From assembly GCF_005576615.1 (NCBI RefSeq), contig NZ_CP040330.1, positions 1,054,001 through 1,118,000 on the forward strand: DNA of 64,000 bases, given 5' to 3'. Shown here one piece after another: positions 6,058 to 9,730 of this stretch. The notes below the pieces were generated by a model. That model was not told where the DNA came from, searched no databases, and was given only the letters and a program-made list of their open reading frames with translations. The translations under genes and the position numbers were made by a program. Origin of the DNA: Natrinema versiforme (GTDB lineage: Archaea; Halobacteriota; Halobacteria; Halobacteriales; Natrialbaceae). How positions within the stretch are numbered: the stretch's first letter is position 1; each line of letters begins with the position of its first letter.

Positions 6058-6140
6058 CGTCGAGAGTCGTTTTGGTTGAAATCGTCGTCGAATCCGAATC
6101 TTCGTTCAATTATAATAATTCATATACGTAAGTATTAGAT

Positions 6141-6149
6141 AAATTTATT
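6141..6149 (+). promoter_or_regulatory. TATA-like box of the small hydrophobic-protein gene
   Basis: An A/T-only stretch lies about 28-36 bases before the ATG at 6177, inside an unusually AT-rich 100-base region. It supports a leaderless or near-leaderless transcript for the 44-residue gene. Confidence 0.5.
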
Positions 6150-6176: not shown

Positions 6177-6311
6177 ATGTCCGCGACAGACAGCATGAAG
6201 GATTACCTCGCACAGCACCCACGAATGATCGGCGCCCTGTTCACGATGTTTGTCCTGCTCAGTCAAGCCGGATCGGCCATAGCGACGAGTTCGTCACAGG
6301 TCGGACCGTAA
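6177..6311 (+). CDS. Small hydrophobic protein, DUF7503-like
   Basis: This is a 44-residue ORF with the core YLAQHPRMIGALFTMFVLL followed by QAGSA, and it ends SSQVGP. The pattern (charged N-terminus, HPRMIG, one hydrophobic helix, small polar tail ending GP) is what I remember of the haloarchaeal DUF7503 family. It should form one membrane helix or a cleaved signal-like peptide. Function is unknown. Its stop lies 75 bases from the stop of the convergent CHAT protease gene. Codon use is less GC-biased than in the glycosylation genes upstream. The existence of the gene is supported by its promoter spacing and family-like sequence. Confidence 0.7.
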   Translation: MSATDSMKDYLAQHPRMIGALFTMFVLLSQAGSAIATSSSQVGP

Positions 6312-6386
6312 CAGCGGACTACTCTTGACAGTCGACTGTTTTCGAAGAGAGAGAACGGAGGAAAGCGGTTCGTAGACGGTTCCTGG

Positions 6387-8477
6387 TTAGCGATGCAGAC
6401 CGCCTAACGTGAGCGCGTTGATCCCGTCGTTCCACTGTAACGTCCCGTCGATTCGGATCGGTGCTTCGCTCCAGATGAGATACTCCTCGATATCCTCCCG
6501 ATCGACCCGTGAGAACGACGTGTTCCCGGGGCTGAGATGACGGTCCGCAACCGACGGGAGCGTCGATTCCGTGGACGTACCAAGTTTGAATTCCTTGGTC
6601 GAATACGATTGAACGGCGAAGTCGAACTGGCCGTCCCCACACTGTTCGAGTTCGACAACCATCGGCGCACCGCTATCCGATTGGGCGATATCAGCTGACC
6701 CGTCGCCGACGATGAGGTACTGCTCACCAAGAGCCGAGTTCGTTCGAGCGATTTCGAGCGCGGCCCGAAGCGGAAAGCCGCAGTCGAGCAATCTGGCCAT
6801 CGTCTCTCCGGCCTCGACGGCCCGATCGTTGACGACATCGGCGTACGTGCTGACACCCCCAAACGCGCCGCGTCGGGTAAGCGCCACCCCCTGATTATAA
6901 GACCGGCAGGCGTTCAGGAAGAAGACCCCGAGATCGACCGAATCGAGGGTCCGTACGTCGAGATCGCCGTTCGGACAGCGGATACCGTCCTCGGTTGCGT
7001 GACCGATATAATGAAAGAAGTCGTAGCCACCCTCGGTGAGTAGCTTGGCGAGTCGGTCCGTATCGACTCCGAACTCCGAGTGGACCTCGAAGGGGAGGAC
7101 CTCACGACTGCCGTACGTACCGTCGAGGAGATCGTGTTCGTCGATCATCCGGGCATCGTTACAGACGAGCAGGATTTCGATCGATTCGTTTCTGGCGTCG
7201 CGGGCCAGTTGATTGCGGTATGCCTCGAGAGTCGCCTTCGAGGCCTGCTGGGGAATGCCGTCGCCGAACCAGGCGTGTTCGACGGACTCGTCGGTGACAT
7301 CGGGAACGACAAACGAGGACCGGTCAGCGCCCGACGGCTGTGACGAGCGGCGGACGCCGGTGGCCGATCGAACCAGTCCCGCCGTATCATCAGGACACGG
7401 GACTGTTTCCGGCGGGCCGCCGCGTGAGTCTCGAACGACGCCGAGTTCGTTGATAATGTACGGTAACAGTTCGACAGTATCGGGATCGGCCGGCACGTGC
7501 GCAGTCAGCGGCCAGCGCGGCATGTGTGGTTCGAGCCGTTCATACGGTACGTCGAGATACCGCTCGAGTCGTTCTGGAAGATCGGCCTCGTAGATCTCCG
7601 CAAGGTCGTATGGCAACTCTTCTTCGAGTATCTGCCGCTCGTGAAGTTCGTATCGGAATATCCCCTCCGTCCTCGTGACGCATTCGAGGAAGAAGAATCG
7701 CTTCAACAGTCGGGCGATCGCGTCCTCGAATGCCTCGCCAGTCGGGAGTGATCGTTCGAACCGACTCGTTTCGAGCGTCGGCTGGGGACCCGGTTGTACC
7801 CTCGCACCGAGGAAGAACACGAGGGGAGCGGCCTGATAGAGTGACGCGTGATCCGGCGGCACGGTCAGCGTTACGTCACTGGCCGGTCGGTCGATGACAG
7901 CCGGAATCTCGAGTCGATCGCCCAGTTCGATCAGCGGCGGGTGGCCGCGCAACGTCGGCCACGTCCGTTCGGCCGAGATCGTCTTCAGTGCAGACGGCAG
8001 GGCGGAGACTGCCTCCATCATGGATTCGACATCGGAGGTGGTCGTTACCGTCGCTGCGGGACGTTCATGAAGCGATCGAATGCCCAACTCGATCCGAGCA
8101 CTCCGGTCGAGCGAGATTCGAATCGACGTTAAGCCAATACTGATCGTCCCCGGGACATCGATTCGACAATAGAGTTTGATACGGCCGCTCAACCCGATGA
8201 ACTGGGTTCGGTCCTCGAGGTGGACCGTTTCACCGGCGTCCAAGTTCGCCTCGGTCTGCCCCGTTGGTCCATGGATCGTAACGGAGTACAGTTGATCGAG
8301 AACGATCTCGTTCGTTTCGATCACGCAGGTCCTTTCGACGGGAAAACAGAACTCACCGGAATCGCCCGCATCCGGCGAGACGGACCCCGACGTTTCGATC
8401 CGTAAGCGGCGTTGTTCGATCGAGTCGTATATTTCCAGTCCGGTCGGGTCCGTCGTATCCTCGATCTCGATCGTCAT
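6387..8477 (-). CDS. CHAT-domain (caspase-like) protein
   Basis: This 696-residue protein has a C-terminal CHAT peptidase domain, of the caspase/separase clan. The catalytic dyad is visible as His493 in HYIGHATEDG and Cys524 in VFFLNACRSY, both after hydrophobic strands as in caspases. The long N-terminal part (1-400) looks beta-rich early, then helical, and I do not recognise a named domain in it. CHAT proteases often act in regulated cell death or defence by cleaving a partner once triggered. Here the only adjacent candidate partner is the 44-residue hydrophobic gene. The gene lies 80 bases downstream of the orc-like gene on the same strand, so read-through from the glp operon is possible. 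Confidence 0.85.
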   Translation of the reverse strand: MTIEIEDTTDPTGLEIYDSIEQRRLRIETSGSVSPDAGDSGEFCFPVERTCVIETNEIVLDQLYSVTIHGPTGQTEANLDAGETVHLEDRTQFIGLSGRIKLYCRIDVPGTISIGLTSIRISLDRSARIELGIRSLHERPAATVTTTSDVESMMEAVSALPSALKTISAERTWPTLRGHPPLIELGDRLEIPAVIDRPASDVTLTVPPDHASLYQAAPLVFFLGARVQPGPQPTLETSRFERSLPTGEAFEDAIARLLKRFFFLECVTRTEGIFRYELHERQILEEELPYDLAEIYEADLPERLERYLDVPYERLEPHMPRWPLTAHVPADPDTVELLPYIINELGVVRDSRGGPPETVPCPDDTAGLVRSATGVRRSSQPSGADRSSFVVPDVTDESVEHAWFGDGIPQQASKATLEAYRNQLARDARNESIEILLVCNDARMIDEHDLLDGTYGSREVLPFEVHSEFGVDTDRLAKLLTEGGYDFFHYIGHATEDGIRCPNGDLDVRTLDSVDLGVFFLNACRSYNQGVALTRRGAFGGVSTYADVVNDRAVEAGETMARLLDCGFPLRAALEIARTNSALGEQYLIVGDGSADIAQSDSGAPMVVELEQCGDGQFDFAVQSYSTKEFKLGTSTESTLPSVADRHLSPGNTSFSRVDREDIEEYLIWSEAPIRIDGTLQWNDGINALTLGGLHR

Positions 8478-8557: not shown

Positions 8558-9730
8558 TCATTCCGAGTCACTCGTGGATGTCGTCGTCGAAAGCGACCGA
8601 AACGCGATCGTCGGGAACCGCGGCTCGACCGTACTCGGTCGTCGACCGCTCCCGGCGTCGGCGGTCGAGAGGGGCAGCCGTTCGATGACCCCGCGATCGG
8701 CGAGTTCGTAGAGGAATCGCTTGACCGTTCCGTCGGTCAGCGACGACCGATCGGCGATCGCGGTCGCGACCTCGCGAATCGGTCGGTCGGTCGATTCGAT
8801 CTCGACGAGCGCCAGCAGCACCTGCTGGCGGGTCTCCGAGAGCGCGAGCGGGCGACCGACGTGGACGCCGTCGTCGGGTACGTCCGCCCGCGCCGTCTCG
8901 AGGTGACGGGGTTCGATCCGCTCGGCGTCGTCCTCGCTCGCAAGCACGGCGGCGCCGAACAGGGCCGCGAGCGCGTCGTGGGCGTTCCCGTCCGCCCACG
9001 CGGCGAGGTCGCGAACGGCGTCGTGATCGAGCGCGCCCGCCGCGAGCCCCGTCGAGGCGCGGTCGGTCACCACGTCGACGAGTTCGTGATCGCGGTAGGC
9101 CGGCACGGTGACGGCTGGCCCCGAGTGGTCGTCGGGCTCCCGATGGCCGACCGCGACGGTGGCAGTGCTGTCCGCGACCGGCGCGAGCAGTTCCCGGACC
9201 CGCTCGAGGCCGAGCGTCTCGGGTTCGTCGTGGTGGTCGATCGCGACGATCGCGTGCCGGTCCGGTCGAGCGAGGCCGTCACAGAGACGCTCGCGCAGAT
9301 CGTCGGTGCCGACGCCGCTCTCGGGGACCCGTTCGCTCGAGATCCCCGAGAGCACGGCTCGGTAGAACGCGAACGCGCTCTCGACCCGCCGGCCGTCGAC
9401 GGTGACGAACCACGTGGCCGGGTCGGTGCTGCCGCCCCGTGTCGTCGTGACGATCGCCCGACTCGAGCCGCCGAACTGGTCGTTCAACGCGTCGAACAGC
9501 GCGGTAACGACGGCCGACGTGCCCGACCCCGACGGACCGACCACCGCGACCGGTGGCGGCAACTCGCCCTCGAAAATCGGCTCGAGCGCGTCGAGCAACT
9601 GCTCTAACACGGGGCCGCGACCGACCGGTTCCGGTCGGTGGACGGCCGGGCTGAGCTGGTCGCGGTCGACGACGACGCGCCGGCCCTGTCGCGCCGATCG
9701 GCGGCGAGCGATGCGCTCCTGGAGGTCCAT
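8558..9730 (-). CDS. Orc1/Cdc6-like AAA+ protein with degenerate Walker A
   Basis: The protein is 390 residues, starting MDLQERIARR. The N-terminal half is AAA+-like: Walker A position GPSGSGTS at residues 65-72, where Thr71 replaces the usual Lys, and a Walker B-like AIDHHDE near residues 164-169. The C-terminal 90 residues look like a winged helix (RQQVLLALVEIESTDRPI onward). It matches a haloarchaeal Cdc6/Cdc18-type family rather than a canonical origin initiator. Its ATG overlaps the glpC stop by one base (TAATG), so it is translated with glpC. Without the lysine, ATP hydrolysis is doubtful and a regulatory DNA-binding role is plausible. The longer in-frame extension up to 10168 is an antisense-frame artefact inside glpC. 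Confidence 0.75.
   Translation of the reverse strand: MDLQERIARRRSARQGRRVVVDRDQLSPAVHRPEPVGRGPVLEQLLDALEPIFEGELPPPVAVVGPSGSGTSAVVTALFDALNDQFGGSSRAIVTTTRGGSTDPATWFVTVDGRRVESAFAFYRAVLSGISSERVPESGVGTDDLRERLCDGLARPDRHAIVAIDHHDEPETLGLERVRELLAPVADSTATVAVGHREPDDHSGPAVTVPAYRDHELVDVVTDRASTGLAAGALDHDAVRDLAAWADGNAHDALAALFGAAVLASEDDAERIEPRHLETARADVPDDGVHVGRPLALSETRQQVLLALVEIESTDRPIREVATAIADRSSLTDGTVKRFLYELADRGVIERLPLSTADAGSGRRPSTVEPRFPTIAFRSLSTTTSTSDSE

What the first reader, a model, noticed from the sequence alone, without database searches (positions are those of the whole stretch)
6177..8477. CHAT protease facing a 44-residue hydrophobic DUF7503-like protein
Seen: the CHAT protein has an intact His493/Cys524 dyad, a 400-residue unassigned N-terminal region, and a convergent 44-residue single-helix gene with its own TATA box 75 bases away. 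Known: CHAT proteases act in programmed death and defence, where small substrates or effectors are often encoded next to them. Inference: the small membrane protein could be a substrate, effector or immunity factor, making an undescribed haloarchaeal two-gene module.
Basis: partly seen in the sequence, partly recalled or inferred. Interest (0 to 1): 0.62.

Follow-up and report, generated by a model that had tools for sequence, protein, structure and literature searches.

The report
Haloarchaeal caspase-like protease with micro-protein partner
Salt-loving archaea almost universally carry a caspase-like protease gene facing a tiny gene whose short protein tail, ending in Gly-Pro, has co-evolved with the protease; the pair looks like an undescribed protease-regulation module, and what it does in the cell is unknown.

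Summary
The 44-aa gene is DUF7503. The 696-aa protein has a CHAT/gingipain/separase-like catalytic fold and an invariant His493/Cys524 dyad. Of 244 distinct DUF7503 copies, 240 face a CHAT homologue convergently within 1.7 kb; the other four are two insertions, one rearrangement and one contig end. The family occurs in 335 of 391 Halobacteria genomes.

Beyond the finding: a second CHAT paralogue, in 29/29 genomes of this genus, faces an unannotated 43-47-aa gene with its own TATA box. It lacks the hydrophobic leader, yet its last seven residues (VSTYGGP) show 19 synonymous and no non-synonymous changes. The tail ending in Gly-Pro is thus the common feature. In 221 pairs, DUF7503 tail positions -8 to -5, not its leader, covary with the CHAT C-terminal domain.

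Best reading: a micro-protein that docks by its tail on its own protease and regulates it, or is cut by it. Near-universal distribution speaks against accessory anti-phage defence. Inhibitor, substrate or activator is undecided; nothing is bench-tested.

The parts
6177..6311 (+). DUF7503 micro-protein gene, 44 aa (MSATDSMKDYLAQHPRMIGALFTMFVLLSQAGSAIATSSSQVGP)
   Evidence: PF24335 E 6.9e-22, cut-off 27 bits, score 77.2; purifying selection in the family
6139..6149 (+). TATA-like promoter element of the small gene (AT-rich, about -38 to -28 from ATG)
   Evidence: A+T peak at this distance in 113 loci; sequence
6177..6284 (+). leader of DUF7503: YLxxHP[RK]M motif, then hydrophobic stretch ending in a small-residue AxA-like site
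   Evidence: P 100%, R/K 100%, G98, F98, Q98, A96 in 163 distinct sequences; mean Kyte-Doolittle over 19 residues 1.75, N-region net charge about 0
6285..6308 (+). C-terminal tail TSSSQVGP, the element shared with the other partner families (ends Gly-Pro)
   Evidence: GP in 145/163; 63 synonymous vs 1 non-synonymous change at GP; covariation with CHAT C-domain
6312..6386 (.). 75-bp convergent intergenic gap with a perfect 12-bp palindrome ACAGTCGACTGT followed by TTTT
   Evidence: sequence read directly; the terminator scan did not flag it
6387..8477 (-). CHAT/gingipain-like protease, 696 aa
8040..8477 (-). N-terminal beta-rich domain (residues 1-146), weakly supersandwich-like
   Evidence: AF2 pLDDT 93.8 for residues 1-318; best Z 8.5 to galactose mutarotase-like 3dcd, weak
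7521..8039 (-). middle region (residues 147-319), conserved RGHPP and LDC..R motifs, no confident relative
6669..7520 (-). two-subdomain caspase/gingipain-like core (residues 320-603)
   Evidence: RgpB Z 20.0 over 241 residues, SAVED-CHAT Z 18.7, separase Z 16.9
6999..7001 (-). catalytic His493 codon
   Evidence: 66/66 homologues; coordinates
6906..6908 (-). catalytic Cys524 codon
   Evidence: 66/66 homologues; coordinates
6828..6830 (-). Asn550 codon; Asn in most partnered CHATs, Asp in most partnerless ones
   Evidence: 218/221 and 28/29 Asn with partner, 2/9 without within the class
6390..6668 (-). C-terminal beta domain (residues 604-696), inferred docking site of the partner's tail
   Evidence: 8-12 of the top 20 columns covarying with tail -8..-5 lie here against 2.6 expected

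Best explanation
A dedicated two-gene protease module. The large gene makes a cytosolic caspase-like Cys protease of the CHAT/gingipain/separase group. The convergent small gene, under its own promoter, makes a micro-protein that docks by its 7-9-residue C-terminal tail (ending Gly-Pro) on the C-terminal domain of its own protease, close to the substrate cleft. I think it most likely acts as a regulatory subunit (a latch or pseudosubstrate-type brake) that in the DUF7503 version also holds the protease at the membrane. Shown by sequence: the dedicated pairing, the protease fold and dyad, purifying selection on both parts of the small protein, the tail as shared element, tail/C-domain covariation. 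Inferred: physical docking, membrane tethering, direction of regulation. Rough chances: dedicated module 0.97; tail docks on CHAT 0.65; regulator rather than substrate 0.4.
For: Pairing: 240/244 DUF7503 copies convergent with CHAT; 40/40 regions fetched from outside the window's family; 161/176 distinct CHATs have a DUF7503 at the 3' side; genomes carrying several modules carry several pairs. Co-absence: G125, G129, G136 and G139 lack both. Fold: RgpB Z 20.0, SAVED-CHAT Z 18.7, separase Z 16.9. Tail as shared element: VSTYGGP partner in 29/29 genomes, no hydrophobic leader, tail 19 synonymous: 0 non-synonymous while the middle evolves at ratio 0.68; Halococcus partner ending CTYSGP; degenerate DUF7503 copies that lost the leader keep NGGLFTGP. 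Docking: tail positions -8..-5 give 11, 8, 8 and 12 of the top 20 covarying columns in the C-domain, against a mean of 2.4 for leader positions and 2.7 for ordinary CHAT columns; tail -4 covaries best with Ser543, on the strand after the catalytic Cys. Residue 550 near that strand switches Asn to Asp in two separate partnerless branches.
Against: No biochemical data. Covariation was corrected by background and weighting only, not by a full phylogenetic model; the tail lies next to the CHAT 3' end, so local gene conversion could add signal, although the leader, only ~100 bp further, shows none. If DUF7503 sits N-in/C-out in the membrane, its tail would be outside and could not meet a cytosolic protease; topology is undecided because the N-region carries no net positive charge. 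CHATs without a partner keep an intact dyad, so the partner is not needed by every family member. 30 of 221 pairs have tails without Gly-Pro.
Confidence: 0.4

Rival explanations
1. Substrate/effector: CHAT cleaves the small protein; the tail is an exosite tag that brings it in, and cleavage (for example after the invariant R/K of HP[RK]M in DUF7503, or after R in AKR|VSTYGGP) releases or destroys a membrane-active or signalling fragment.
For: Invariant basic residue in 163/163 DUF7503 sequences and Arg before VSTYGGP in 29/29; best structural match is an Arg-specific gingipain, and Lys-gingipain and separase also match; Csx29-Csx30 is a precedent; covariation reaches Ser543 by the cleft.
Against: The basic residue sits in different places relative to the tail in the two partner families, so there is no single shared cleavage site; Asp550, which could give basic specificity, is mostly Asn in partnered CHATs; the VSTYGGP partner has no recognisable effector part.
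Confidence: 0.27
2. Peptide ligand/activator: the 7-9-residue tail is released (by signal peptidase in DUF7503) and works as a pherotype-like signal that switches the cognate CHAT on, in the layout of Gram-positive Phr/AimP-type precursors.
For: Conserved leader + variable 5-7 residues + fixed Gly-Pro; AxA-like site with A in 96%; tails differ between paralogues but are kept within orthologues.
Against: No positive n-region; leader identity is conserved far beyond a normal signal peptide; the VSTYGGP partner has no signal sequence; the receptor would be a CHAT, with no precedent I know of.
Confidence: 0.15
3. Protease/immunity pair: CHAT is harmful and the small protein is its antidote, perhaps as part of antiviral abortive infection.
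For: One partner per protease; no DUF7503 copy clearly without a CHAT; several CHAT genes are disrupted beside an intact partner.
Against: CHATs with intact dyad and no partner persist; near-universal distribution, not patchy; no PADLOC or viral link. CHAT is ~16 times longer, so more disruptions are expected anyway.
Confidence: 0.1
4. The pairing acts at RNA level: convergent overlapping transcripts regulate each other and the small protein is incidental.
For: Orientation is always convergent and the gap is usually below ~120 bp.
Against: Strong protein-level selection; covariation between tail residues and CHAT residues; in a few genomes both genes persist although insertions separate them.
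Confidence: 0.04

Closest known systems
Csx29 (TPR-CHAT) with Csx30, Craspase type III-E CRISPR
   Same: CHAT protease with a dedicated protein partner encoded beside it; core aligns at Z 12-14
   Different: no gRAMP/Cas7-11 or CRISPR genes seen here, no helical TPR N-terminal part (N-terminus is beta-rich), partner is a 44-aa micro-protein with a Gly-Pro tail
SAVED-CHAT protease of type III CRISPR (8tl0)
   Same: closest CHAT by Foldseek (E 2.3e-7), Z 18.7 over 170 residues
   Different: no SAVED domain detected (not excluded); no CRISPR context seen; different partner
Gingipains RgpB/Kgp (peptidase C25)
   Same: best structural match, two caspase-like subdomains plus a C-terminal beta domain, Z 20.0 and 18.4
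   Different: gingipains are secreted with a pro-domain; this protein shows no signal sequence by eye and has about 320 extra N-terminal residues
Separase-securin
   Same: clan CD protease with a dedicated inhibitor; separase core Z ~17
   Different: securin is not known to dock by a C-terminal Gly-Pro tail (my knowledge); no sequence relation
CHAT or caspase-like protease + bacterial gasdermin
   Same: protease next to a membrane-related partner
   Different: gasdermins are several hundred residues with a C-terminal inhibitory peptide (my knowledge); DUF7503 is 44 aa with one hydrophobic stretch
Orphan caspase-like activity of Haloferax volcanii (PMC3615174)
   Same: DUF7503 is found in H. 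volcanii (control) and CHAT relatives in other Haloferax species; the paper calls for the genes to be identified
   Different: activity reported resembles caspase-4 (cleavage after Asp); whether this CHAT has it is untested

Membership tests
DUF7503 (PF24335) | profile match above the curated cut-off | tested here: met
   77.2 bits against 27
CHAT / clan CD cysteine peptidase | catalytic His and Cys in HxxGH and NxCxS motifs | tested here: met
   His493 and Cys524 invariant in 66/66
CHAT / clan CD cysteine peptidase | caspase-like fold | tested here: met
   AF2 pTM 0.90; SAVED-CHAT Z 18.7, RgpB Z 20.0, separase Z 16.9
CHAT (PF12770) | Pfam profile match above the gathering score | tested here: not met
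   no match for this protein, best E 0.012 in 6 of 52 homologues: a divergent branch, filed by fold and not by this model
CHAT / clan CD cysteine peptidase | proteolytic activity | not testable with these tools
   needs purified enzyme
TPR-CHAT (Csx29/Craspase) | helical TPR repeats N-terminal to CHAT | tested here: not met
   residues 1-146 are nearly all beta strand in the models
TPR-CHAT (Csx29/Craspase) | adjacent CRISPR effector genes | tested here: inconclusive
   none among the recurrent neighbours identified; not every neighbour was annotated
SAVED-CHAT | SAVED cyclic-nucleotide sensor domain | tested here: inconclusive
   no Pfam match; N-terminal model gives only weak supersandwich-like hits, best Z 8.5
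Known anti-phage defence systems | match to a PADLOC model | tested here: not met
   0 families for either protein
Type II toxin-antitoxin | two genes in one operon | tested here: not met
   convergent genes, small gene with its own TATA element
Gram-positive-type peptide pheromone precursor (Phr/AimP/PapR) | Sec signal peptide with positive n-region and cleavable site | tested here: inconclusive
   AxA-like site in most but N-region net charge averages -0.11
Gasdermin | pore-forming domain of gasdermin size and fold | tested here: not met
   partner is 44 aa with one hydrophobic stretch

The most novel reading that the evidence does not exclude
Haloarchaea possess a general, class-wide system in which caspase-like proteases are individually controlled by cognate micro-proteins through a short, rapidly diversifying C-terminal peptide ending in Gly-Pro. 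The code is peptide-to-protease specific, independent of the rest of the micro-protein (membrane leader in DUF7503, soluble leader in the VSTYGGP family), and may be read as an intracellular or secreted signal. It would be the first such peptide-protease recognition system in archaea and a candidate source of their orphan caspase-like activity.
Probability: 0.28. Interest if true: 0.85.

Novelty: new variant of a known kind. Interest (0 to 1): 0.68.

Why it matters
A protease of the caspase/separase group with its own micro-protein partner appears to be a near-core feature of an entire archaeal class, yet neither gene has a described function in the papers searched. The tail gives a defined, testable handle: eight residues that should bind, and whose exchange between paralogues should exchange specificity. 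It also offers concrete candidate genes for the caspase-like activity reported in Haloferax volcanii, whose responsible protein that paper left unidentified. The VSTYGGP family shows that conserved micro-proteins of these organisms can escape family libraries, and that convergent position plus tail conservation can find them.

Tried and rejected
Loss of the catalytic dyad as a sign of dependence on the partner: rejected, the dyad is intact in all 66 homologues, partnered or not. Flanking genes as part of the module: mostly not conserved beyond close relatives; DUF7504 upstream in 49/187 and a HalX response regulator beyond DUF7503 in 31 are recurrent but optional. Viral origin: no encoding contig in the viral collection; the best viral fold hits are weak. 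Sequence search in solved structures: nothing. N-terminal domain identity: only weak supersandwich-like matches (galactose mutarotase, GH31 N-domains, YidC periplasmic domain), best Z 8.5, not used. Counting disrupted CHAT genes beside intact partners as evidence for an antidote: rejected, CHAT is ~16 times longer and frameshifts may be assembly errors. Ribosome-arrest reading of the terminal Gly-Pro: considered and dropped, because no regulated gene is known downstream on the same transcript and the residues before it vary. Literature: no paper on DUF7503, DUF7504 or CHAT domains in haloarchaea/Haloferax. The first covariation run and runs 86-87 and 89-90 include a few rows where a wrong ORF was probably taken (L090, L091, L255); one search repeats the covariation test on DUF7503 pairs only and is the one to rely on.

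Full report
WHAT IS IN THE WINDOW. The 44-aa ORF at 6177-6311 (+) and the 696-aa ORF at 6387-8477 (-) are present as described. Their stop codons are 75 bases apart. The small protein is DUF7503 (PF24335), E 6.9e-22. The large protein matches no Pfam, NCBIfam or PADLOC model, and Pfam CHAT rings only weakly in a few homologues. The AlphaFold2 model is good (pLDDT 88.9, pTM 0.90). Residues 320-603 are a two-subdomain caspase-like core: Arg-gingipain Z 20.0, SAVED-CHAT Z 18.7, Lys-gingipain Z 18.4, separase Z 16.9; Foldseek puts SAVED-CHAT first at E 2.3e-7. His493 and Cys524 are invariant in 66/66 homologues. Residues 604-696 form a C-terminal beta domain. Residues 1-146 are beta-rich and only weakly like known supersandwich domains. 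The genome is of the genus Natrinema or close to it, judging by the nearest named homologues.

IS THE PAIRING REAL? In 125 genomes of the window's family, 125 of the 150 best DUF7503 hits lie within 1 kb of a listed CHAT homologue, all convergent and none in another orientation. Of the remaining 25, nearly all have an unlisted convergent CHAT. In 40 regions picked outside that family, 40 have the same convergent pair. Over everything held, 240 of 244 distinct DUF7503 copies are convergent with a CHAT within 1.7 kb. The four others are two with extra DNA between the genes (one showing a transposase-like ORF), one rearrangement and one contig end. The family occurs in 335 of 391 Halobacteria genomes and 73 of 86 genera, including Haloferax volcanii. 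Genomes with several CHATs tend to carry several DUF7503 genes. Beyond the pair, neighbours change from clade to clade. DUF7504 stands upstream of CHAT on the same strand in 49 of 187 loci and a HalX response regulator beyond DUF7503 in 31, which hints at a signalling context.

WHAT THE SMALL PROTEIN IS. In 163 distinct sequences the leader reads YLxxHP[RK]MxGxLFTxxLLLSQAG[TSN][VA]xA; the Pro is invariant and the next residue is always Arg or Lys. The tail has 7-9 variable residues and ends Gly-Pro in 145 of 163. Both parts are under purifying selection (dN/dS about 0.19 and 0.18; synonymous changes near saturation in the tail). The final Gly-Pro has 63 synonymous and 1 non-synonymous change in 60 independent pairs, with all four Gly and Pro codons in use, so the constraint is on protein. 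The leader is hydrophobic enough for a membrane helix or signal sequence, but its N-region carries no net positive charge on average, so topology is undecided. A promoter element about 28-38 bases upstream of the ATG is a general feature.

A SECOND, UNANNOTATED PARTNER. A second CHAT paralogue (33% identical to the window's) is present in 29/29 genomes of the genus and has no DUF7503. At the same convergent position there is, in 29/29, a 43-51-aa ORF (most 43-47, depending on the start chosen) with its own TATA-like element, in this genome at G000:C2:2324115-2324252 (-). It has no hydrophobic leader. Its last seven residues are VSTYGGP throughout: 19 synonymous and 0 non-synonymous changes in 14 independent pairs, while its middle evolves at a ratio of 0.68. 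Pfam does not know it. Two Halococcus species have a different leader ending CTYSGP. Three genomes of this genus have degenerate DUF7503 copies that lost the hydrophobic part and kept NGGLFTGP.

WHERE THE TAIL MAY BIND. In 221 DUF7503-CHAT pairs (effective number 125), background-corrected mutual information puts 11, 8, 8 and 12 of the top 20 CHAT columns for tail positions -8, -7, -6 and -5 into the C-terminal domain, which holds 13% of columns (2.6 expected). Leader positions give a mean of 2.4, and ordinary CHAT columns 2.7, with only 2.8% reaching 8. The recurring partners are Met606, Thr634, Glu637, Thr639, Arg646 and Tyr666; position -4 goes with Ser543, on the strand after the catalytic Cys. 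The leader is nearly as close on the genome, so linkage alone does not explain this, but no phylogenetic model was fitted. Pairwise distances of the two proteins correlate (r 0.60), and DUF7503 agrees with CHAT on paralogue assignment in 270 of 369 comparisons. CHAT residue 550, a few residues after that strand, is Asn in 218/221 DUF7503-paired and 28/29 VSTYGGP-paired proteins, but Asp in 7 of 9 partnerless ones inside the class. The switch occurs on two separate branches of the tree. From memory, separase uses an acidic residue in this region for its Arg specificity; that is a lead, not a test.

HOW IT MOST LIKELY WORKS. The protease and its micro-protein form a cognate pair in which the tail docks on the protease's C-terminal domain near the cleft. 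I favour a regulatory subunit: in the DUF7503 form it would also bring the protease to the membrane, in the soluble form it would not. A substrate reading is close behind. Immunity is disfavoured because partnerless CHATs with an intact dyad persist. Accessory anti-phage defence is disfavoured by near-universal occurrence, no PADLOC or viral match and mostly chromosomal location. None of the biochemistry is tested.

COMPARISON WITH THE KNOWN. It works somewhat like Csx29-Csx30, CHAT-gasdermin and separase-securin in having a clan CD protease with a dedicated partner, but membership in those systems is not met or not shown: no TPR, no CRISPR context seen, no gasdermin-sized partner. No paper in the library mentions DUF7503, DUF7504 or CHAT domains in haloarchaea. 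H. volcanii has a strong caspase-like activity whose protein was unidentified (PMC3615174); this module supplies a candidate, with the caution that the reported specificity is for Asp.

VERDICT. Observation confirmed; interpretation partly supported and moved: a conserved, undescribed protease-micro-protein module, with the C-terminal Gly-Pro tail as its key. New variant of a known kind.

Noticed in passing
L227:5616-5753 (-), that is G000:C2:2324115-2324252 (-); orthologues in L247-L275: Unannotated 45-aa gene convergent with the second CHAT paralogue, ending in invariant VSTYGGP, in 29/29 genomes of the genus, with a conserved caataactatatac promoter-like element.
   Followed up: yes
L217 and L223, 3' end of CHAT: Halococcus partner ORF overlapping the CHAT stop by 13 bp, Cys-containing, ending GASACTYSGP; probably a GTG start.
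   Followed up: partly
L119:7984-8688 (-) and 48 further loci: DUF7504 (PF24336) gene on the same strand directly upstream of CHAT in 49 of 187 loci; possible third member of the module outside the window's clade.
   Followed up: partly
L107:6549-7145 (-) and others: HalX-domain response regulator beyond DUF7503 in 31 loci.
   Followed up: partly
window 8558-9670 (-): Cdc6/Orc1-like AAA ATPase with winged helix, far below the Orc1/Cdc6 equivalog cut-offs, upstream of CHAT on the same strand; same arrangement in 38 loci.
   Followed up: partly
window 6326-6341: Perfect 12-bp palindrome ACAGTCGACTGT followed by TTTT in the convergent gap; possible bidirectional terminator.
   Followed up: no
L235, L236, L238 (another family of the same phylum): More distant members of the CHAT family in about 3-Mb genomes outside Halobacteria, with no DUF7503.
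   Followed up: partly
L239, L240, L245, L246: Paralogues that match mainly the N-terminal part and a small C-terminal piece of CHAT, possibly degenerate or pseudo-protease relatives.
   Followed up: no
DUF7503 leader versus tail in 60 pairs: Synonymous divergence in the leader is about half that in the tail (0.29 vs 0.61), a possible extra nucleotide-level constraint on the leader.
   Followed up: no
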